IMG/VR virus record: IMGVR_UViG_3300030102_004162
Coordinates: 2,863 to 23,184 of that record
DNA: 20,322 nucleotides
Strand: one strand, 5' to 3'
From: a virus
Below, piece by piece: positions 3,594-20,117 of this stretch; position 1 is the first letter of the stretch, and each line of letters begins with the position of its first letter. A program made the translations under genes and the position numbers. The notes under the pieces were generated by a model, which saw nothing but the letters and a program-made list of their open reading frames with translations, had not been told where the DNA came from and made no database searches.

Positions 3594-3899
3594 TTACAGT
3601 TTAATTTTAACAGTAACCCGCTTTCTCCGATGATGGTGATGGTGGTGATGCGTATGACCGTGAGTTCTAATAATAACTCGTGGATGCCTGTGAACCACCA
3701 CATTTCTACAGTTTCTTTTTACATTGTATGTATAATACCCATCAACCAAGATTCGACCGCGACTGTTAACAACAGCGGGCACCCAAACCCATCCTGTTTT
3801 TACATTTTCGCAAACGGTCCTAACTTCATGGGCTTCAGCTTCCTGCATCAGCCCTAAAGACATAAATGAAAGCAACATTACTGAGAAAAACTTCATCAT
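3594..3899 (-). CDS. Secreted histidine-rich protein
   Basis: Family not recognised. The 101-aa product begins with a clear signal peptide (MMKFF, hydrophobic segment, then EAEA before His) with likely cleavage after about residue 23, so the mature part should be periplasmic or outside the cell. The C-terminus has a run of seven histidines plus HGHTH and HRH motifs, followed by the basic segment RRKRVTVKIKL. Together these suggest metal binding (Zn, Ni or Cu) or a charged surface contact. Two cysteines remain in the mature part. GTG 3902, ATG 3899 and ATG 3896 are all possible starts; AGGAGGAG at 3907-3914 gives the best spacing (7 nt) to ATG 3899. It sits between the recombinase and 5' nuclease genes, an odd place for an exported protein. 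Function is unknown; metal binding is inference. Confidence 0.8.
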   Translation of the reverse strand: MMKFFSVMLLSFMSLGLMQEAEAHEVRTVCENVKTGWVWVPAVVNSRGRILVDGYYTYNVKRNCRNVVVHRHPRVIIRTHGHTHHHHHHHRRKRVTVKIKL

Positions 3900-3917
3900 C
3901 ACTTAACTCCTCCTGTC

Positions 3918-8980: not shown

Positions 8981-10153
8981 TTAGATGGTCAAGCCCGTTT
9001 TTACTCCAACCATGTACTTTCCAAACCTAGTATCACCAAAAGTTTGAACTGCTTTTCTGATAATCTCGCTATCTTCTTTAGCTACATCTAAAATTATCTC
9101 ATCGTGAATAATAAAAGCAATCCTTGACCTGCATCCACGAAGCATTTTATCTATTTTTATCGCCTGCTCTACTACCATGTCGGATGTTGTGCTTTGAATA
9201 AGGTAATTTAGAGCCCTTCTTTTATCAACAGCGATATTTCTTCCAAAAGGAGTCGAGACCGTGGTGCCATTCCAGTGTTTTTGCACAAGTTCTTGTCTAT
9301 TATATGCCCTTTCAAGTAAACGGTCACTAGAATCTGGATTATATAGCCAAGAAAAAAGACGTTTCTTAGCCTCTTCTCGCGAGCCTGTATTACCGAATAC
9401 GTTTACCTTATTCCACTCATGGATGTCCTCTACGGGCTGCTCAGAGCCTCCCAAGGCAAGTAGAGTTCTAAGTTCTGCACCGTTAAAGTCAAGGCTGATA
9501 AAACTGTCGTTGCTTGGTCGAATCGATTTGCGGTAATCTTTTGGCAATGTCAAGATTGGGAAGCCGCCCTTTTTTGTTGTCAGTCGCCCAGTCTTAGTTC
9601 CAAAAAGATTATATCTACAGTATGGACTTAGATGACGCAGCTTTTTAATATCTTGTCGAACTTTACTCTTGTGCATGCTGTTTCGCATATTAGACCAGTT
9701 TAAGTTTACTTTTTGTAGAGAAATTTTGTGCAAAAGCTTGGCGGCTCCCAACAGATGCTCATAGTTATCTGGCTTTTCATAACTCTCAAACACATGTTGA
9801 CATATTGCATTTTTTACAAAACAGTAGTCCTTTAAGAATCTTTCGGGAACCAAGTCATAGAAACAGTTATCCTCAAGAGAGACTTTTGCTTCGAAGATAG
9901 ATCTCATGAAAGCTTGCAATTTTTTATTTACAAACTTCCAGTCTTCTTTCAGATGATCAGGACAAGCGTCGTCAAGCCCACGCCCACAGTACAGATCAGC
10001 ATACTCAATATCGTATCCTTCCAAGTAGGAAGCATATGTCCATGTTCTTGTCCCTGAGAACCCATCTTTGATACGATCCTCGCCATATAGTAATGCTCCA
10101 TCATTATAAACACCCACGCACTCTTGTTTGCTGTCTAGGGTCTGGAAAAGCAC
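8981..10153 (-). CDS. Compact family A DNA polymerase
   Basis: Replicative polymerase of PolA type reduced to palm, fingers and a short thumb. Numbering the 394-aa frame from TTG 10165: a template-contact region GTKTGRLTTKKGGFPIL (189-205), motif A SLDFNGAELR (Asp226, Glu231), O-helix motif B with Arg263, Lys267, Phe271 and Tyr275 at the canonical four-residue spacing (the glycine after Phe replaced by Ser, and the one after Tyr by Asn), NYLIQSTTSDMV (320-331), and motif C IIHDEIILDV (His354-Asp355-Glu356). No DxE exonuclease motif is visible in the first 180 residues and no 5' nuclease domain is present, so proofreading must be absent or come from another gene. GTG 10153 is chosen because GAGG lies 6 nt upstream; TTG 10165 overlaps the upstream stop and has no clear ribosome-binding site. 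The enzyme family is certain. Confidence 0.92.
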   Translation of the reverse strand: MLFQTLDSKQECVGVYNDGALLYGEDRIKDGFSGTRTWTYASYLEGYDIEYADLYCGRGLDDACPDHLKEDWKFVNKKLQAFMRSIFEAKVSLEDNCFYDLVPERFLKDYCFVKNAICQHVFESYEKPDNYEHLLGAAKLLHKISLQKVNLNWSNMRNSMHKSKVRQDIKKLRHLSPYCRYNLFGTKTGRLTTKKGGFPILTLPKDYRKSIRPSNDSFISLDFNGAELRTLLALGGSEQPVEDIHEWNKVNVFGNTGSREEAKKRLFSWLYNPDSSDRLLERAYNRQELVQKHWNGTTVSTPFGRNIAVDKRRALNYLIQSTTSDMVVEQAIKIDKMLRGCRSRIAFIIHDEIILDVAKEDSEIIRKAVQTFGDTRFGKYMVGVKTGLTI

Positions 10154-10161
10154 CAAGCACC

Positions 10162-11478
10162 TCAATAAATGATTGTGTTCTCGGAGCGACCAAAGAGCTT
10201 AATTATATCCCTAACGTCGCTTGAGTCATATTTTCTTTCCGCTTCCAGAGACTCTGTTAGCTGATCAAACTGTGACGAGTTTGGCGTGCTTGCAAAACCT
10301 CTAAACTTGTAGTCAATATAACCCATTGCTCTCTCTAAGTCAAATGTTCTTTCAAGATCTAGTGCATTTCTTGTAATCTTTTGAACCTCGTTCTCGTCAT
10401 AGCCAAGGTATGTCTCCATAGACTTGAATTGAATATATACCTGAAGCCAGTAAGATGGTTCCCTAAAATCTTCGTCTCTGCTCTGAATGGTGTCTCTCGT
10501 AATCACTTTATAGTATGTACACCCATTTTTCTCATATGGTATCCTAGTCATGGGTTTATCGATTGCCACCTGATTATAGAGCCTTATCATATTATTTCTG
10601 AGAAGTTTAATGTCCATCTCTGACGCTTTCGTGTAGTACCTTTCAAAGAAAGAGTTTAGATCTGAATACTCTGGGTATCTCTTTTTGATATATTCTTGCA
10701 TTTGCGACGAACCAAGATTGGCAACAAGCCTCCAAGGAGCATTCTTGTCAACCCAAAAGCCATATTCAGCAGCAAGATTCTTGTGGATACCAAACCTCCT
10801 GTTGTCTATGAATAAGTTCTGCTTTTTTTCATCATCGCCATGGTCAAGCTCGCCTATCTCAACTGCAAGACCCGTGCTCAAAACTGATCCATATTTAGAA
10901 ATTAAGTAAGAAGATAAATTGAATGGCACAGACGGGAACAAGCCGATTCGAGCAAACTGCGCGAAGATATCTTTGAAGTCTTCAAAATTTTCAATATCGG
11001 CTATTTTGTTTCTGCCTATTAAATAATCCTGATAAAAAATATCAAAGATCTGCCTTATATGATTGTTGTAATTCTTTCCCACATTATCATAGGCTCTGCC
11101 AATCTGATAAGGTCCGATGTATAATTCCTCTGAGTCATCGGCATTTTTCAAAGAGAGACCGCCATCTTGAATTCGTAAAGTAGCGGTCTTCAGCAAATCT
11201 TTAAAAGCGTCCGCAACAAAATCAAAAGCGAAAAAAGGCTTTTTACTTTTGGAGGGGAGACGAGCGAAATATTCTTTATTGGGTAGAACTATGTTCTCGC
11301 TCGTATCTATTCTTCCGTAAAAAAGATTTTCATAAGTTTTAAAATCTTTTATCACAGCGTCCGATGGCATACTTGGGTCAGCCTCATAGGCATATAGATC
11401 GTATGCGATGCGCCGCAAAAACAAATCTGTAGAGCTAGAATCTGTGTTCTTTGCTATGAATTTTTTTCTAATAGACAT
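10162..11478 (-). CDS. Uncharacterised protein, probable virion component
   Basis: 438 residues, no recognised domain. It is rich in aromatic residues (many Tyr and Phe), mixed alpha/beta in appearance, with no signal peptide or membrane segment. Strong Shine-Dalgarno GGAGGTG precedes ATG 11478, twelve nt after the 926-aa gene stop. It follows the tail/baseplate genes, which suggests a baseplate, neck or capsid-associated role. Its stop falls inside the start region of the DNA polymerase gene, so it could equally belong with replication. Function cannot be assigned from sequence alone. Confidence 0.8.
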   Translation of the reverse strand: MSIRKKFIAKNTDSSSTDLFLRRIAYDLYAYEADPSMPSDAVIKDFKTYENLFYGRIDTSENIVLPNKEYFARLPSKSKKPFFAFDFVADAFKDLLKTATLRIQDGGLSLKNADDSEELYIGPYQIGRAYDNVGKNYNNHIRQIFDIFYQDYLIGRNKIADIENFEDFKDIFAQFARIGLFPSVPFNLSSYLISKYGSVLSTGLAVEIGELDHGDDEKKQNLFIDNRRFGIHKNLAAEYGFWVDKNAPWRLVANLGSSQMQEYIKKRYPEYSDLNSFFERYYTKASEMDIKLLRNNMIRLYNQVAIDKPMTRIPYEKNGCTYYKVITRDTIQSRDEDFREPSYWLQVYIQFKSMETYLGYDENEVQKITRNALDLERTFDLERAMGYIDYKFRGFASTPNSSQFDQLTESLEAERKYDSSDVRDIIKLFGRSENTIIY

Positions 11479-15462: not shown

Positions 15463-17973
15463 TTAGCCTCCGGTGATCTTCTTCTCGACTCTAGAGTCAA
15501 TAACTTCAAATAGCTTTCTCATATCACCGTGAATAACACTTTCAACGTTTACAATGGTAGGTCCACCACCAGCGCCCGCTCCACCAAGGACAGCAACTGC
15601 TTGATTGGGTGCTGCGCCTGCTGCTGCCAATGCCTCAAGGAACCTAGAAGACTCTCGCATTGTCATGCTAAACGTGACAGCTTTATCAGTCTCAATCTCA
15701 TTTATAGCGTCAGCCATCTTTTGTAACTCTTCAGCCCCAAGAGAGCCAACGCCTAGCAGTGATCCAATTGATGAAACTAACATAGATATTCCCGCTGCTG
15801 CAACGCCAATCCCTACGCCGACTAAAGCAAAAGCTGCCCCCATCATCATCACAGACGCTCCTATGCCCATTAGCCCAAGCGTTAGGGCGATTCCAACCGG
15901 CGACAAGAAAAAAGCTCCCATGGCTGCAAAAGAGCCCACTAGAGAATACACGCCGATTGAAAGAAGTCCAATCGCAACGGCTGCTGCTAACATTTGACCG
16001 GGCGTAAGTAAGCTAAATGAAGCGATAAAAAGAGCCATACCTCCTGCTGCCATAAGAATACCCGCACCAACCATCAGGGCTGCTGCACCGAATGCCAAGG
16101 TAGGTCCAACAGCGGCACCAGATGCAGTTCCAGTAGCAAATATGCCTCCTGCTCCCGTGACTCCAGCGGGTCCGAGGGAAGACAGAGACAGTGCCTGTTT
16201 CTTTGTCACTTTTTCCTGAACCTTCTGGACACCTGCAAGGATAGCGGTTGAGCCTGCCAAACTTGTTGCCGCAGCAGAAAGTTGGGTCAGGGTTGCGCTC
16301 GTAGCTTGTCCAGCAGCCATGGTCGCCAATAGCAATCTTCTAAATCGCCTAAACGTAAATATCGTTAGTGTGACGGCTCCAGTCAGCATAGCAAAGCCGG
16401 GAAGAGCGGCAAACAAATAACCCCCAAATCCCCCCATCGATTGACCTGCTTGTTGGAATATTGCGATTCCAAAGTTAAATAACGCCACAACTTTCTGTAC
16501 AAGTTGAAGAACAGGTGCCAAAGATGCGACAACACTCAAAAATGCTGCACTCAATTCTTGCTGGAGATCTTTTGTAAATGCAGTTTGTGCTGCAAGGTCT
16601 TCCATTCTCATTTCGGCTTCGCTAGATGCTAGCCCAAGTGCCTCAAGATCTCCCGCCATCAGGGCACCAAGATCATCCACTTCAATCCCAGCGGCAGCGG
16701 CAAGTGCTTGCTTCTGGTAATAGCCCATGTCTTGATATGCGACACCAGCGTCAGCAACGGCATCACGAAGCATAAGCATTCTCTCTGCTGGATCCGTGAC
16801 CGATACCATGTCGATGGTATTCAAGAAGGGACCGCCCAACATGGCGTTAAGTTGCCCCACTCGATCAGCAGCACCCTCAAAAGTATCAAACTGCTCTGTG
16901 ATACCTAAAAGAGTCTGAAGCTCTATGCCTGTTCCCTTGGCGACCTCTTTTAGATCAATAAAAGTCTCAACCGATTGTTTGCCAAACTTTGCCAACTTAG
17001 GAGAAGCAGCAGCAAATTCATCTGCCATTTCTCCCGGTCCAACCTTAAGTTCCTGCGCTGCGGTGAACAACTGCCTTGTTGCTGCCTCTGCTTCTTGTGC
17101 TGACATAGCAAGGGAGGTTGTCATAAATTGAAGATTTTTTGTTGTAGTCTGGGCAGAAACACCAAGTGCGCCAAGCACACCAACTGTATCAATTAGCTGG
17201 TTTTGGGTGGCTTCGGTCTCTGATGTAAAGTCGGTCATGTTCAGAGTTAAGCCTGTCATGTTAGCTGCTGTATCGGCTGCTGAAACGCCCAAAGCTGCCG
17301 ACCTCATAACAGCAGACTGCAACTGTAAGTTAAACTCTCTACTTTGCCCTGTGGCTTTATTAAACTGAGCGTTTAAGCTAACCAGCTCGGTCGAGAGCTT
17401 AATTGTAGCACCGACAAGAGCCGTGGTAACCTGCATAAAGAACCTGTAAGCATTCAGGGCTCCTTGTACACCTGTCACTTGAGCTTTCCACTGACCTGCT
17501 GTAGCGCCCAATGCTTGTCTTAGACCGCCCTCTTTCTCGACAGTCATAATCAAACTAGCGGCATAAGATTGAGTTATGTCTGCGTTGCCGCCAATAATTG
17601 GAGTGATCTGGGCTAAGGAGTCTCCAAGATTCTTTGCACCCTTTGCCCCCTGCTCTTGAAGACTTATCTTCATCTGAAGCTGCGCTATCTCGTCTTCAGC
17701 AGCTTCGTTATAATCTTCGAGCGCCTTTTGTGCCTTAGCCACCACCTCTGGCTCCTCACGCATCGCTTTCAGTTGTTCAACGTGTAATTTAAGCCTCTGT
17801 TCGCCAATACTTATAAGTTCTAGCTGTGTTTGATAAGTACCATTTGTAACTTCGCCATAAGCGCGTGCTGCGGTTTCTAGTTGGTCTAGTTTTTCTATTC
17901 GTTCTTCAAGCGATTCGTTTGCTTCTCTAATTGCTTGTGCTAGTCTTTTTTGTTCTTCTGTTGTCATTGCCAT
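15463..17973 (-). CDS. Tape measure protein
   Basis: 836 residues, the longest helical gene in the tail cluster after the tube and chaperone region. The N-terminal ~110 residues are charged helices (RLAQAIREANESLEERIEKL), then an Ala/Thr-rich helical middle (about 150-490), followed by several hydrophobic helices (about 490-530 and 640-760, for example PVGIALTLGLMGIGASVMMM). That pattern of helical rod plus membrane-active segments is typical of tape measure proteins, which set tail length and help DNA cross the inner membrane. At roughly 1.5 Angstrom per residue the predicted tail is about 125 nm. Length exceeds T4 gp29 (590 aa). No lysozyme or peptidase motif was seen. The start at ATG 17973 has only a weak ribosome-binding site. 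Confidence 0.9.
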   Translation of the reverse strand: MAMTTEEQKRLAQAIREANESLEERIEKLDQLETAARAYGEVTNGTYQTQLELISIGEQRLKLHVEQLKAMREEPEVVAKAQKALEDYNEAAEDEIAQLQMKISLQEQGAKGAKNLGDSLAQITPIIGGNADITQSYAASLIMTVEKEGGLRQALGATAGQWKAQVTGVQGALNAYRFFMQVTTALVGATIKLSTELVSLNAQFNKATGQSREFNLQLQSAVMRSAALGVSAADTAANMTGLTLNMTDFTSETEATQNQLIDTVGVLGALGVSAQTTTKNLQFMTTSLAMSAQEAEAATRQLFTAAQELKVGPGEMADEFAAASPKLAKFGKQSVETFIDLKEVAKGTGIELQTLLGITEQFDTFEGAADRVGQLNAMLGGPFLNTIDMVSVTDPAERMLMLRDAVADAGVAYQDMGYYQKQALAAAAGIEVDDLGALMAGDLEALGLASSEAEMRMEDLAAQTAFTKDLQQELSAAFLSVVASLAPVLQLVQKVVALFNFGIAIFQQAGQSMGGFGGYLFAALPGFAMLTGAVTLTIFTFRRFRRLLLATMAAGQATSATLTQLSAAATSLAGSTAILAGVQKVQEKVTKKQALSLSSLGPAGVTGAGGIFATGTASGAAVGPTLAFGAAALMVGAGILMAAGGMALFIASFSLLTPGQMLAAAVAIGLLSIGVYSLVGSFAAMGAFFLSPVGIALTLGLMGIGASVMMMGAAFALVGVGIGVAAAGISMLVSSIGSLLGVGSLGAEELQKMADAINEIETDKAVTFSMTMRESSRFLEALAAAGAAPNQAVAVLGGAGAGGGPTIVNVESVIHGDMRKLFEVIDSRVEKKITGG

Positions 17974-17989
17974 GGGTCATTATTGCAGC

Positions 17990-18331
17990 CTATTTGATAG
18001 GCCACTTTACTCCTGTTTCTCTTTCGAATGAAGAAATGGCACTTCTTAGTCTCGCGCTGTTAGCTGCGGTTCTTGGATCATCTAAGCCATACTTTCTTGC
18101 AATCTCGATGTATCTCTTCTCGCTTGACATTGTTTTCACAAAAGAATCAATCTCTCTAGGCGTGCCTCTTATGACACCCTTCAAAAATGAAGCTGGGTTC
18201 TGGTCAAGAAGAACGCCCAGAAATAACCTAACACCATTAGCAAAGTTTCTAATTAGGTCTTCATTAATCTGATCTCCGCGAACTGTGGCGAAATCTATGA
18301 CCAATGGCTGCAACTTGTCTTCATTAAGCAT
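17990..18331 (-). CDS. Uncharacterised protein between chaperone and tape measure
   Basis: 113 residues, helical and soluble in appearance, mixed charge, no cysteines. Segments such as EDLIRNFANGVRLFLGVLLD and REIDSFVKTMSSEKRYIEIA suggest a small all-helical fold. Good Shine-Dalgarno GGAG 9 nt before ATG 18331. It follows the terminator at 18371-18413 and precedes the tape measure gene by 16 nt. A role in tail assembly is inferred only from position. No family recognised. Confidence 0.75.
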   Translation of the reverse strand: MLNEDKLQPLVIDFATVRGDQINEDLIRNFANGVRLFLGVLLDQNPASFLKGVIRGTPREIDSFVKTMSSEKRYIEIARKYGLDDPRTAANSARLRSAISSFERETGVKWPIK

Positions 18332-18370: not shown

Positions 18371-18413
18371 TGTCAATAAAAGAAAGGTCGAAGGTTTTAA
18401 CGCCTTCGACCTT
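18371..18413 (-). terminator. Rho-independent terminator
   Basis: On the minus strand an 11-bp perfect stem, AAGGTCGAAGG (18413-18403) with CCTTCGACCTT (18394-18384), with an 8-nt loop, followed by TCTTTTATT. This is a classic intrinsic terminator after the frameshift extension gene, and the strongest in the window. It would reduce tape measure and baseplate expression relative to sheath and tube. Confidence 0.92.
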
Positions 18414-18434: not shown

Positions 18435-18626
18435 TTACCTTCCACTTTTCTTTGTAACTTTTTCCATTTCTGACTTTTCATCGTCGAATTGCTTCTGAAG
18501 ACGCCTGATAAACCAATTTCTTAATCGAATAGGTAGGTTATAAGCTTCAATGAAGCTCCAGCCTCCGTGATATTTCAACAAAAAGAACGTCTCGTAGACA
18601 CCCTCTATGTATTCATCACTCAGACC
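18435..18626 (-). CDS. Frameshift-expressed extension of the gp26/gp51-like protein
   Basis: A 63-codon open frame, beginning Gly-Leu-Ser-Asp-Glu-Tyr, that starts inside the end of the 282-aa gene in another frame. It is helical and compact: EGVYETFFLLKYHGGWSF, NLPIRLRNWFIRRLQKQF, then a charged tail. No ATG or GTG occurs in frame before a methionine near its end, an in-frame TGA lies five codons upstream of the T7 run, and no Shine-Dalgarno site is evident. A +1 or -2 shift at T7 (18627-18633) would join it to the upstream protein as a 342-343-aa fusion. Position between tail tube and tape measure matches the frameshifted tail-assembly chaperones of lambda (G/GT), P2 and Mu. An indel or use of a TTG start are the alternatives. 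Confidence 0.7.
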   Translation of the reverse strand, partial: GLSDEYIEGVYETFFLLKYHGGWSFIEAYNLPIRLRNWFIRRLQKQFDDEKSEMEKVTKKSGR

Positions 18627-19464
18627 AAAAAAATTTGGCTGTCAGGGGCACCTCCATTTCGGATTCAAAGCCGCAGTTTCCACATACATATTCCTGCTTC
18701 ATGTCAATATTGGGCACAGCCTTCTTATAGACACCTCGAAGGTACCTAGTATCAATAGCTGGAGCATTATTGATGAAAGACTCGATCAGAGCGCGATTAG
18801 ATTGTCCATTAACTTCTGTAATGACCCTGCGAAGCTGATCAGTAACAACAGACTCTGGCAAACCCTTCTTTTTACGATTTGCTGAAAGTTCTGTGAGGTA
18901 CTTTTCATCTTCCCCAGAGAGAATACGCATCTGAACTGTAGCCTTTGTGGCAGGAACAGTTACTGTAAATCTACCTTTATCTGTCCTCTCGATCTCAAAT
19001 CCTTCGATGTTTTCCCAATCATTAGACTTCAGACCTTCAAGATCAAAAATGTGCTCTCCCTGCTCTCCGCAGCTTGGACAAGCAATCTCGACACCATAAT
19101 CGGAGCCAAAGCCGCTAATACGGGAGGCAATGATGAGAGCATTCTTATCGCCAACTGCCATTTCTGCGAGCTTGATTCGCTTATCAACTAGAATGCTCTC
19201 CAGCATCCTATCAATAGCAACACCCTTCTTTAGCAAGGACTGAGAGGTTAGAATATCCTCTTCCTTTGCTGTCATGAACTTGATCTCGACTTGCTCCACC
19301 TTGTGCAGTGGGTGCCCTTCGGGATAAAACATGCCCTTCGTAGGAAGATCCACGAAGGTCGTTGGGGTAGTGAAAGCGAGATGGGGATTCTGATTACTGT
19401 CCGTTGCAGCAGGACTGTCTGACTGCATAGGAGCGCCCATCCGCTCAAGATTATTTCTCGACAT
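18616..19464 (-). CDS. gp26/gp51-like baseplate or tail-assembly protein with zinc ribbon
   Basis: 282 residues matching the T4 baseplate gp26/gp51 pattern: TFVDLPTKGMFYPEGHPL (36-53), VEIKFMTAKEEDILTSQSLLKKG (59-81), VGDKNALIIASRISGFGSDYG (104-124). Two CxxC pairs, Cys129/Cys132 (CPSC) and Cys261/Cys264 (CGNC), about 130 residues apart, should bind one structural zinc. In T4 gp51 is an assembly catalyst and gp26 a hub component; here the gene sits right after the tail tube, so an assembly-chaperone role is attractive. Shine-Dalgarno GAGGTG precedes ATG 19464. Its last codons contain a T7 run where a shift would append another 63 codons instead of the terminal Trp-Ser-Glu. Confidence 0.85.
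   Translation of the reverse strand: MSRNNLERMGAPMQSDSPAATDSNQNPHLAFTTPTTFVDLPTKGMFYPEGHPLHKVEQVEIKFMTAKEEDILTSQSLLKKGVAIDRMLESILVDKRIKLAEMAVGDKNALIIASRISGFGSDYGVEIACPSCGEQGEHIFDLEGLKSNDWENIEGFEIERTDKGRFTVTVPATKATVQMRILSGEDEKYLTELSANRKKKGLPESVVTDQLRRVITEVNGQSNRALIESFINNAPAIDTRYLRGVYKKAVPNIDMKQEYVCGNCGFESEMEVPLTAKFFWSE
18627..18636 (-). promoter_or_regulatory. Candidate programmed frameshift site
   Basis: Minus strand AAATTTTTTT followed by GG, read in the zero frame as AAA TTT TTT TGG, three codons before the TGA stop. A homopolymer of seven T's lets Phe-tRNA re-pair in shifted frames. A +1 or -2 move leads into the 63-codon downstream frame; a -1 move meets TGA after two codons. Confidence 0.65.
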
Positions 19465-19478
19465 TTACACCTCTAATT

Positions 19479-20117
19479 TTAGAATATTTTATCTATGCTT
19501 GGGTTTAGACCCTGAATCTTGGTGAACATTTCTTGAGCCTCAGCGTTTCCAGCGTTAACGTTAATAGCGACTTTGTTGTCAGTCGGAACGATACAAGAAG
19601 CCCAGTCATATCTAAATTCAATATCAATCGAGGAGAGATCATCATTGCTGTAGTCAAGCTCGGACATGTTGACCTTGGTGATAAACGGAGAATGGAGTGT
19701 CCACTCTTCAAGAATTTCTGTATTCTCGCCGTTGATCATTTTGATAACAACTGAGTTAAGCTGCCCAACAGAGGCTGCTTTTGTGGTAGTTGTTCCACGC
19801 TCAGCAAGGTTAAGAACGGATGGGTCATAGCCGCTGAACTTAACAATCTGGAGCAACTGATTAATCGCATCGGGGTTAACCGGATCGACAAGCGTAAGAG
19901 TGACCGGATCCCACTTAGTGCGGGTAGGATAATAGAACGTATGGTTTAGAAACATATGCTCTGTTTGCTCAATAGTAAAATTAGGTCTGCTAACCTTCTT
20001 AGCGAACCACTCGGCGTTACCCTCCATAGAAGTAATACCAACTAGAAATCTAAAATTTCTTTTTGGATCCTCTGATGTTGCGTCAGTCCAGAAATTTTTG
20101 CGTGGTTTTGGTGCCAT
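19479..20117 (-). CDS. Tail tube protein (T4 gp19-like)
   Basis: 212 residues (T4 gp19 is 163). Forms the stacked rings of the inner tail tube. Diagnostic stretches: NFRFLVGITSMEGNAEWFAKK near the N-terminus, IEQTEHMFLNHTFYYPTR (49-66), KWDPVTLTLVDPVNPDAINQ (68-87), and a C-terminal VNMSELDYSNDDLSSIDIEF region containing the S-x-L-D-Y-S motif common to tube proteins. Good Shine-Dalgarno GAGGAG. It follows the sheath gene, the same order as T4 18-19. A C-terminal extension compared with T4 is plausible. Confidence 0.92.
   Translation of the reverse strand: MAPKPRKNFWTDATSEDPKRNFRFLVGITSMEGNAEWFAKKVSRPNFTIEQTEHMFLNHTFYYPTRTKWDPVTLTLVDPVNPDAINQLLQIVKFSGYDPSVLNLAERGTTTTKAASVGQLNSVVIKMINGENTEILEEWTLHSPFITKVNMSELDYSNDDLSSIDIEFRYDWASCIVPTDNKVAINVNAGNAEAQEMFTKIQGLNPSIDKIF

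What the first reader, a model, noticed from the sequence alone, without database searches (positions are those of the whole stretch)
18435..18640. Likely programmed +1/-2 frameshift in a gp26/gp51-like tail gene, at the tail-chaperone position
The 282-aa zinc-ribbon protein ends three codons after AAA TTT TTT TGG. A shift of +1 or -2 at the T7 run enters a 63-codon frame with protein-like composition (aromatic and basic helices) that has no in-frame ATG/GTG until near its end, no ribosome-binding site, and a stop just upstream. The pair sits between the tail tube and tape measure genes, where lambda, P2 and Mu encode frameshifted assembly chaperones. I know of no such frameshift in T4 gp26 or gp51 themselves, so this would link that family to the chaperone paradigm.
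Basis: partly seen in the sequence, partly recalled or inferred. Interest (0 to 1): 0.78.

Follow-up and report, generated by a model that had tools for sequence, protein, structure and literature searches.

The report
+1 frameshift in T4-type tail chaperone
A phage tail-assembly gene, related to T4 genes 26 and 51, appears to be read in two ways: some ribosomes slip forward one base at a conserved run of Ts and add a 63-residue tail, so one gene makes the short and long chaperone forms that T4 makes from two genes.

Summary
On the minus strand, the 282-aa gp26/gp51-family protein (PF12322) ends AAA TTT TTT TGG TCT GAG TGA, and the +1 frame continues for 63 codons. In 99 of 101 homologous loci with readable junctions the same small domain lies in the +1 frame (93 at YTT TGG); two have it at -1. 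Non-homopolymer sites favour +1 over -2. The tail evolves as protein and has no conserved start codon. GGAGG sits exactly 20 nt before the slip codon in 60 loci, with strong codon constraint. In T4-side phages (cyanophages, KVP40, phiM12, a pelagiphage) the same tail is at -1 behind U UUU UUY. T4 instead has two genes: gp26 is the short form, gp51 the long form with the tail fused. Some contractile injection systems fuse or overlap the two parts. Best reading: a programmed +1 frameshift making a short/long tail assembly chaperone pair. That T4-like phages have such chaperones was reported by Vladimirov et al. 2022 (not held; known through citing papers). What looks new is the +1 branch with its GGAGG element and the DUF6760 link. 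No product was observed.

The parts
18616..19464 (-). Gene 1, short product (TAC-N; T4 gp26-like), 282 aa, two CxxC zinc-ribbon motifs, stop TGA 18618-18616
   Evidence: PF12322 E 4.4e-10, 40.1 bits over cut-off 24.5; PHROG 150 E 1.6e-10
18649..18655 (-). GGAGGTG, internal Shine-Dalgarno-like element; GGAGG ends 20 nt before the slip codon
   Evidence: GGAGG at exactly 20 nt in 60 of 93 YTTTGG loci against one per 2967 nt elsewhere in the same genes; where the codon is the Glu of E-[VI]-P it is GAG with a preceding G in 62/62, while GAG is 35% of Glu codons elsewhere
18642..18644 (-). TGA closing the +1 frame upstream of the slip site
   Evidence: sequence
18627..18633 (-). T7 run; slip codon TTT 18630-18628 followed by T 18627 (UUU-U), zero-frame A-site codon TGG 18627-18625
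   Evidence: YTT TGG in 93 of 99 +1 loci; TTC never used as slip codon in those 93 although it is 24% of Phe codons elsewhere
18435..18626 (-). +1-frame tail, 63 codons plus TAA (C-terminal part of the long product; DUF6760-like; homologous to the C-terminus of T4 gp51); expected fusion 279 + 63 = 342 aa
   Evidence: third-position-dominated substitutions (5/4/24 by codon position against L001) and conserved residues without a conserved start; profile matches to cyanophage tails and eCIS tails
18384..18413 (-). Terminator-like hairpin after the tail frame
   Evidence: 11-bp stem followed by TCTTTTATTG; consensus match only
19479..20117 (-). Tail tube protein gene upstream
   Evidence: PHROG 4542 tail tube E 6.9e-25
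15463..17973 (-). 836-aa putative tape measure protein downstream
   Evidence: size and position; the analogous gene in Flavobacterium phage immuto is annotated tail tape measure; no family hit of its own

Best explanation
[quoted passage not shown] Most ribosomes read TTT TTT TGG TCT GAG TGA and release a 282-aa short form (TAC-N, gp26-like). A fraction slip when the second UUU is in the P site: tRNA-Phe re-pairs from UUU to the overlapping +1 UUU before UGG is decoded. Decoding resumes at GGU and the ribosome makes a 342-aa long form carrying a helical tail domain (TAC-NC, gp51-like). A GGAGG(U) element fixed 20 nt upstream probably pauses or strains the ribosome through anti-SD pairing. By analogy with lambda G/GT, the short form would coat the tape measure and the long form's tail would recruit tube subunits. 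Shown here by sequence: frame, site, element, coding of the tail and homology. Inferred: slippage itself, the ratio, the element's role and the chaperone function.
For: 99 of 101 readable homologous loci have the tail in the +1 frame, 93 of them at YTT TGG. Synonymous slip-site bias: 0/93 TTC against 24% elsewhere. Gene-1 codons 271-279 are identical 9/9 among three relatives against 31% of comparable codons overall. GGAGG lies at exactly 20 nt in 60/93. Tail: positions 5/4/24 substituted, residues conserved before any start codon; 19/93 loci, including the window, lack any ATG/GTG/TTG from the upstream stop to tail codon 11. Fused homologues exist: T4 gp51 against the cyanophage fusion (prob 98.3, E 2e-14) and the cyanophage fusion against the window-clade fusion (prob 98.1, E 1e-13); tail-only profiles E 2.5e-9 and 1.6e-10, with column shuffles far lower. 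eCIS carry both parts in one ORF. The -1 side has T TTT TTC in 80/80 cyanophage contigs.
Against: No protein or reporter data. About one third of loci have an in-frame ATG at tail codon 7, so secondary initiation is possible in those. Downstream RNA structure is not conserved (window z about -2, mean near -0.15 over 17 loci). A 20-nt SD spacing matches neither the short spacing of prfB nor the roughly 10 nt of dnaX. The direct T4 gp51-tail to window-tail profile match is not significant alone; the link runs through cyanophage-type tails.
Confidence: 0.88

Rival explanations
1. The same frame is reached by a -2 shift, as reported for phage Mu, rather than +1; the product would have one more Phe.
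For: On the T7 run both shifts re-pair perfectly. GGAGG upstream is of the kind that pulls ribosomes backwards in -1 shifts.
Against: L031, L070, L009, L014 and L006 keep the frame with TTC TTT TGG, TTC TTT CGT, CTG TTT CGC and AAC TTT CTA, where -2 would put tRNA-Phe on UCU, UGU or ACU, while +1 puts it on UUU or UUC.
Confidence: 0.06
2. The tail is a separate small gene started on its own or by termination-reinitiation; the overlap is ordinary gene packing.
For: The -1-side phages KVP40, phiM12, phiW-14 and the cyanophages have an ATG right at the zero-frame stop; Actinomycetota eCIS overlap the two ORFs by GTGA or ATGA.
Against: Window and L001-L003 have no ATG/GTG/TTG before tail codon 16; no start position is conserved in the +1 set; conserved residues lie before any start. 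GGAGG is 20 nt before the slip codon and the window has no tail-frame start after it. HTVC008M also lacks an in-frame ATG.
Confidence: 0.06
3. RNA polymerase slippage on the T7 run makes mixed mRNAs.
For: Runs of 7 T can provoke slippage.
Against: Loci with TTTCTTTGG (L008, L033, L048, L058), TTCTTTTGG, TTTCGT and TTTCGC keep the arrangement with runs of only 3-4 T. The conserved GGAGG at fixed spacing looks like a translational signal.
Confidence: 0.04
4. Sequencing or assembly indel, or a decayed gene.
For: Metagenomic contig; homopolymer.
Against: Same frame relation in about 99 independent records, including isolate phages such as Bacillus SP-15, RM378, Mel-JY01 and immuto.
Confidence: 0.01

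Closest known systems
T4 gp26 and gp51 (hub assembly chaperones; tail assembly chaperones according to Vladimirov et al. 2022 as cited)
   Same: Same family PF12322; gp26 corresponds to the short product, gp51 (201 aa of PF12322 plus 48 aa of tail) to the long one
   Different: T4 uses two divergent neighbouring genes, no frameshift; gp26 and gp51 group together inside the -1 side of the tree (98/87, long branches)
Single-gene T4-side phages: cyanophages P-SSM2 and S-PM2, pelagiphage HTVC008M, KVP40, phiM12, phiW-14 (gp26 plus short 'gp51' ORF)
   Same: One PF12322 gene followed by the same tail domain in another frame at the same FF motif
   Different: Shift is -1 at U UUU UUC/U, with GGAGG exactly 10 nt upstream in 53/80 cyanophage contigs; most also have an ATG at the stop
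Lambda G/GT and other frameshifted tail assembly chaperones (P2, Mu, Vandenendeviridae)
   Same: Gene position between tube and tape measure; short form plus rare frameshifted long form
   Different: No Pfam TAC hit here, so treated as analogous; direction +1 instead of -1 or -2. Review PMC5009743 calls the G-T shift conserved among long-tailed phages 'except T4'
prfB (RF2) +1 frameshift
   Same: YUU-U P-site slip; CUU-U in four loci; SD-like element upstream
   Different: Sense codon UGG instead of UGA; SD spacing 20 nt instead of a few nt; zero-frame product is itself functional by inference
PF20546 DUF6760 in extracellular contractile injection systems
   Same: Phage tails match it weakly (window E 0.085; L096 tail E 0.0044 or 7e-4; eCIS to phage tails E 1.4e-7) and it sits directly after a PF12322-type gene
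   Different: There the two parts are fused (L210-L212) or overlap by GTGA/ATGA, no slip site

Membership tests
T4-type tail assembly chaperone (PF12322; TAC-N/TAC-NC) | PF12322 domain over the curated cut-off | tested here: met
   40.1 bits against 24.5
T4-type tail assembly chaperone (PF12322; TAC-N/TAC-NC) | Located between tail tube and tape measure genes | tested here: met
   Tube gene directly upstream; 836-aa putative TMP downstream after a 113-aa ORF; same order in immuto, SP-15, LIS04
T4-type tail assembly chaperone (PF12322; TAC-N/TAC-NC) | Short form plus long form with homologous C-terminal extension | tested here: met
   Frame-fused sequences align to T4 gp51 through cyanophage forms, tail included
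T4-type tail assembly chaperone (PF12322; TAC-N/TAC-NC) | Both forms made, long form in minority, bind TMP and tube, absent from virion | not testable with these tools
   Needs proteomics and binding assays
Programmed +1 ribosomal frameshift | Conserved slippery codon with +1 re-pairing and conserved downstream frame | tested here: met
   99 of 101 loci, coding signature of the tail
Programmed +1 ribosomal frameshift | Stimulator element | tested here: inconclusive
   GGAGG at exactly 20 nt in 60/93 but its effect is untested and its spacing unusual; no conserved downstream structure
Programmed +1 ribosomal frameshift | Shifted product observed | not testable with these tools
   Needs mass spectrometry or a reporter
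Canonical -1 (X XXY YYZ) frameshift | Open -1 frame after the slip site | tested here: not met
   -1 frame stops right after the run in the window
prfB-type autoregulatory +1 site | UGA stop next to the slip codon and SD a few nt upstream | tested here: not met
   Next codon is UGG, GGAGG is 20 nt upstream
Lambda G/GT homologous family | Sequence match to a Pfam phage TAC family | tested here: not met
   Only PF12322 plus weak zinc-ribbon and YnfU hits; filed as working like G/GT, not as a homologue

The most novel reading that the evidence does not exclude
A distinct class of SD-assisted recoding: in this +1 branch a GGAGG(U) element held at exactly 20 nt from a YUU-U slip codon drives forward slippage, while the sister -1 branch uses the same kind of element at 10 nt before U UUU UUC. 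Spacing and slip site would then have co-evolved to switch shift direction within one gene family. The same two-part chaperone (PF12322 + DUF6760) would run from T4-type and jumbo phages to contractile injection systems, solved as +1 shift, -1 shift, duplication, fusion or overlapping genes.
Probability: 0.45. Interest if true: 0.7.

Novelty: new variant of a known kind. Interest (0 to 1): 0.58.

Why it matters
It explains, for a very large and mostly uncultured branch of T4-related phages, how one gene supplies both chaperone forms, and corrects annotations: the small tail frame is missed, or called 'hypothetical' or a truncated 'gp51'. It offers a natural experiment on recoding: one protein family with +1 shift, -1 shift, duplication, fusion and overlapping ORFs, and an SD element at two fixed spacings that can be tested in E. 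coli. It also suggests a role for DUF6760, until now of unknown function, in assembling contractile injection systems.

Tried and rejected
-2 shift, transcriptional slippage, independent start and indel were each tested against homologues and are less likely (see rivals). A conserved downstream RNA structure was sought and not found. Its fold matches only gp26/gp51 relatives in BFVD and nothing in PDB. PDB sequence search gave nothing. SPO1 has no PF12322 match. The idea that the gp26/gp51-chaperone link is new was dropped after finding citations of Vladimirov et al. 2022; that paper is not held, so whether it mentions +1 sites is unknown. L078 and L064 were set aside because their contigs end at or inside the tail; L012 and L013 were kept apart because their tail is at -1.

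Full report
CHECK. The window is part of a 24.9-kb virus record. Everything of interest is on the minus strand. The 282-aa ORF 19464-18616 ends GCC AAA TTT TTT TGG TCT GAG TGA. The +1 (= -2) frame, closed by a TGA at 18644, runs through the T7 run and codes 63 residues (GLSDEYIEGVYETFFLLKYHGGWSFIEAYNLPIRLRNWFIRRLQKQF...) to TAA at 18437-18435. The 282-aa protein is PF12322 T4_baseplate and PHROG 150 baseplate hub; the gene upstream is a tail tube gene.

CONSERVATION. Close relatives L001-L003 (73-89% identical) keep AAATTTTTTTGG, the frame and the tail. Scans of viral and genome contigs gave about 90 more, and isolate phages as far as Bacillus SP-15, Listeria LIS04, Streptococcus GXN1, Streptomyces BRock, Flavobacterium immuto and Microcystis Mel-JY01 were added. 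Of 101 readable junctions, 99 have the tail in the +1 frame, reachable at a [TC]TT[TC] site: 87 TTT TTT TGG, 4 TTT CTT TGG, 2 TTC TTT TGG and 6 others. The two exceptions, Atu_ph07 and LR756511, have it at -1. Rhodothermus phage RM378, read by hand afterwards, also has TTT TTT TGG and the +1 tail. The slip codon is never TTC in the 93 YTTTGG loci, though TTC is 24% of Phe codons elsewhere in these genes (the sequences are related, so this is not a formal probability).

THE TAIL IS PROTEIN. Between the window and L001 the tail differs at 5, 4 and 24 first, second and third positions. In 88 gap-free tails (chosen for G1, L2 and Y6), Y11, E12 and F15 are nearly invariant too. No start codon position is conserved. 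19 of 93 loci, including the window, have no ATG/GTG/TTG between the upstream stop and tail codon 11.

CIS ELEMENT. Gene-1 codons 271-279 are identical in all nine comparable places among window, L001 and L003, against 31% overall. Where the sequence is E-[VI]-P, Glu is GAG and the preceding base is G in 62 of 62, although GAG is 35% of Glu codons elsewhere. GGAGG lies exactly 20 nt before the slip codon in 60 of 93 loci, after Met, Leu, Val, Thr or Ala codons that all end in G; elsewhere in these genes GGAGG occurs once per 2967 nt. It is rarely placed to start the tail. I read it as an internal Shine-Dalgarno stimulator. Its 20-nt spacing is unusual and its effect unproven.

DIRECTION. Sites without a long T run (TTC TTT TGG, TTC TTT CGT, CTG TTT CGC, AAC TTT CTA) re-pair for +1 but not for -2. 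The same sites and TTT CTT TGG also speak against polymerase slippage.

THE T4 SIDE. P-SSM2, S-PM2, HTVC008M, KVP40, phiM12 and phiW-14 each have one PF12322 gene and the same tail in the -1 frame behind U UUU UUC or U UUU UUU. 80 of 80 cyanophage contigs have T TTT TTC, the codon before always ending in T (AGT, AAT, TCT, GCT), with GGAGG exactly 10 nt upstream in 53. Most also have an ATG at the stop, so both a fusion and a free tail are possible; HTVC008M has no such ATG. T4 has gp26 (PF12322 over 206 of 208 aa) and gp51 (PF12322 over 201 aa plus 48 aa). The gp51 extension is homologous to the cyanophage tail (E 2.7e-9 for the tail alone, 2e-14 for the longer alignment). Campylobacter phage CPX also has two PF12322 genes in a row, the second with a tail-like end. 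In a tree, the single-gene -1 phages of the T4 side and the duplicated genes fall on one side (93/98), and all 24 +1 members, with the eCIS fusions and the two divergent -1 phages (Atu_ph07, LR756511), on the other. gp26 and gp51 group together (98/87, long branches, so provisional).

INJECTION SYSTEMS. In Bacteroidota eCIS loci L210-L212 the PF12322 and tail parts are one ORF; in several Actinomycetota loci the DUF6760 tail overlaps the preceding ORF by GTGA, ATGA or CTGA. eCIS tails match phage tails (E 1.4e-7).

PRIOR KNOWLEDGE. T4 gp26 and gp51 are listed as hub assembly chaperones (PMC3004832). The review PMC5009743 states that the G-T frameshift is conserved among long-tailed phages 'except T4'. 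GenBank's KVP40 note and Sullivan et al. 2010 (PMC3037559) recognised that cyanophage and vibriophage 'gp51' are only the C-terminal part. Vladimirov et al. [quoted passage not shown] according to PMC10885494 some carry a short gene plus a long fusion gene, and according to PMC12846349 poly-T -1 signals are known in T4-like TAC-N genes. So the kind is known. The +1 branch, its fixed GGAGG element and the eCIS/DUF6760 link were not found in the papers searched (searches are limited to open PMC text).

VERDICT. A programmed +1 frameshift making the short and long tail assembly chaperone is the best explanation (0.88). It works like lambda G/GT and is a member of the T4-type (PF12322) chaperone family; it is not shown to be homologous to lambda G/GT.

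Noticed in passing
L130-L209, L112, L113, L241, L240, L242: T4-side phages combine a conserved U UUU UUC/U heptamer with an ATG overlapping or just after the gene 1 stop, so a fused and a free tail could both be made; relative use is unknown.
   Followed up: partly
L213 (G076), L222, L223, L226: eCIS in which the DUF6760 ORF is in the -1 frame over the stop of the PF12322-type gene after a G-rich stretch (GGGGGAATC, GGGGCGATCC); starts would be ATA, GTG or CTG. Coupling or a frameshift cannot be told apart here.
   Followed up: partly
L012 (Agrobacterium phage Atu_ph07), L013 (LR756511): Two jumbo-phage members on the +1 side of the tree have the tail in the -1 frame with T TTT TTC at the FF motif: the shift direction may have switched.
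   Followed up: partly
window 17990-18331 (-): 113-aa ORF without family hits between the tail frame and the putative tape measure; a small ORF sits in a similar place in Mel-JY01.
   Followed up: no
window 8981-10165 (-): DNA polymerase ORF with a TTG start of only 394 aa that matches only the C-terminal polymerase region (PHROG 17 positions 963-1202 of 1445); the 438-aa neighbour 10162-11478 has no hit. Possibly a split or shortened polymerase.
   Followed up: no
window 3594-3902 (-): 102-aa ORF (GTG start) with a signal-like N-terminus and a run of eight histidines, possibly metal binding; no PHROG hit.
   Followed up: no
L243/L247 (Campylobacter phage CPX): Tandem short and long PF12322 genes, a second case of separate genes for the two chaperone forms; the annotated start of the second gene (105269) is probably too late.
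   Followed up: partly
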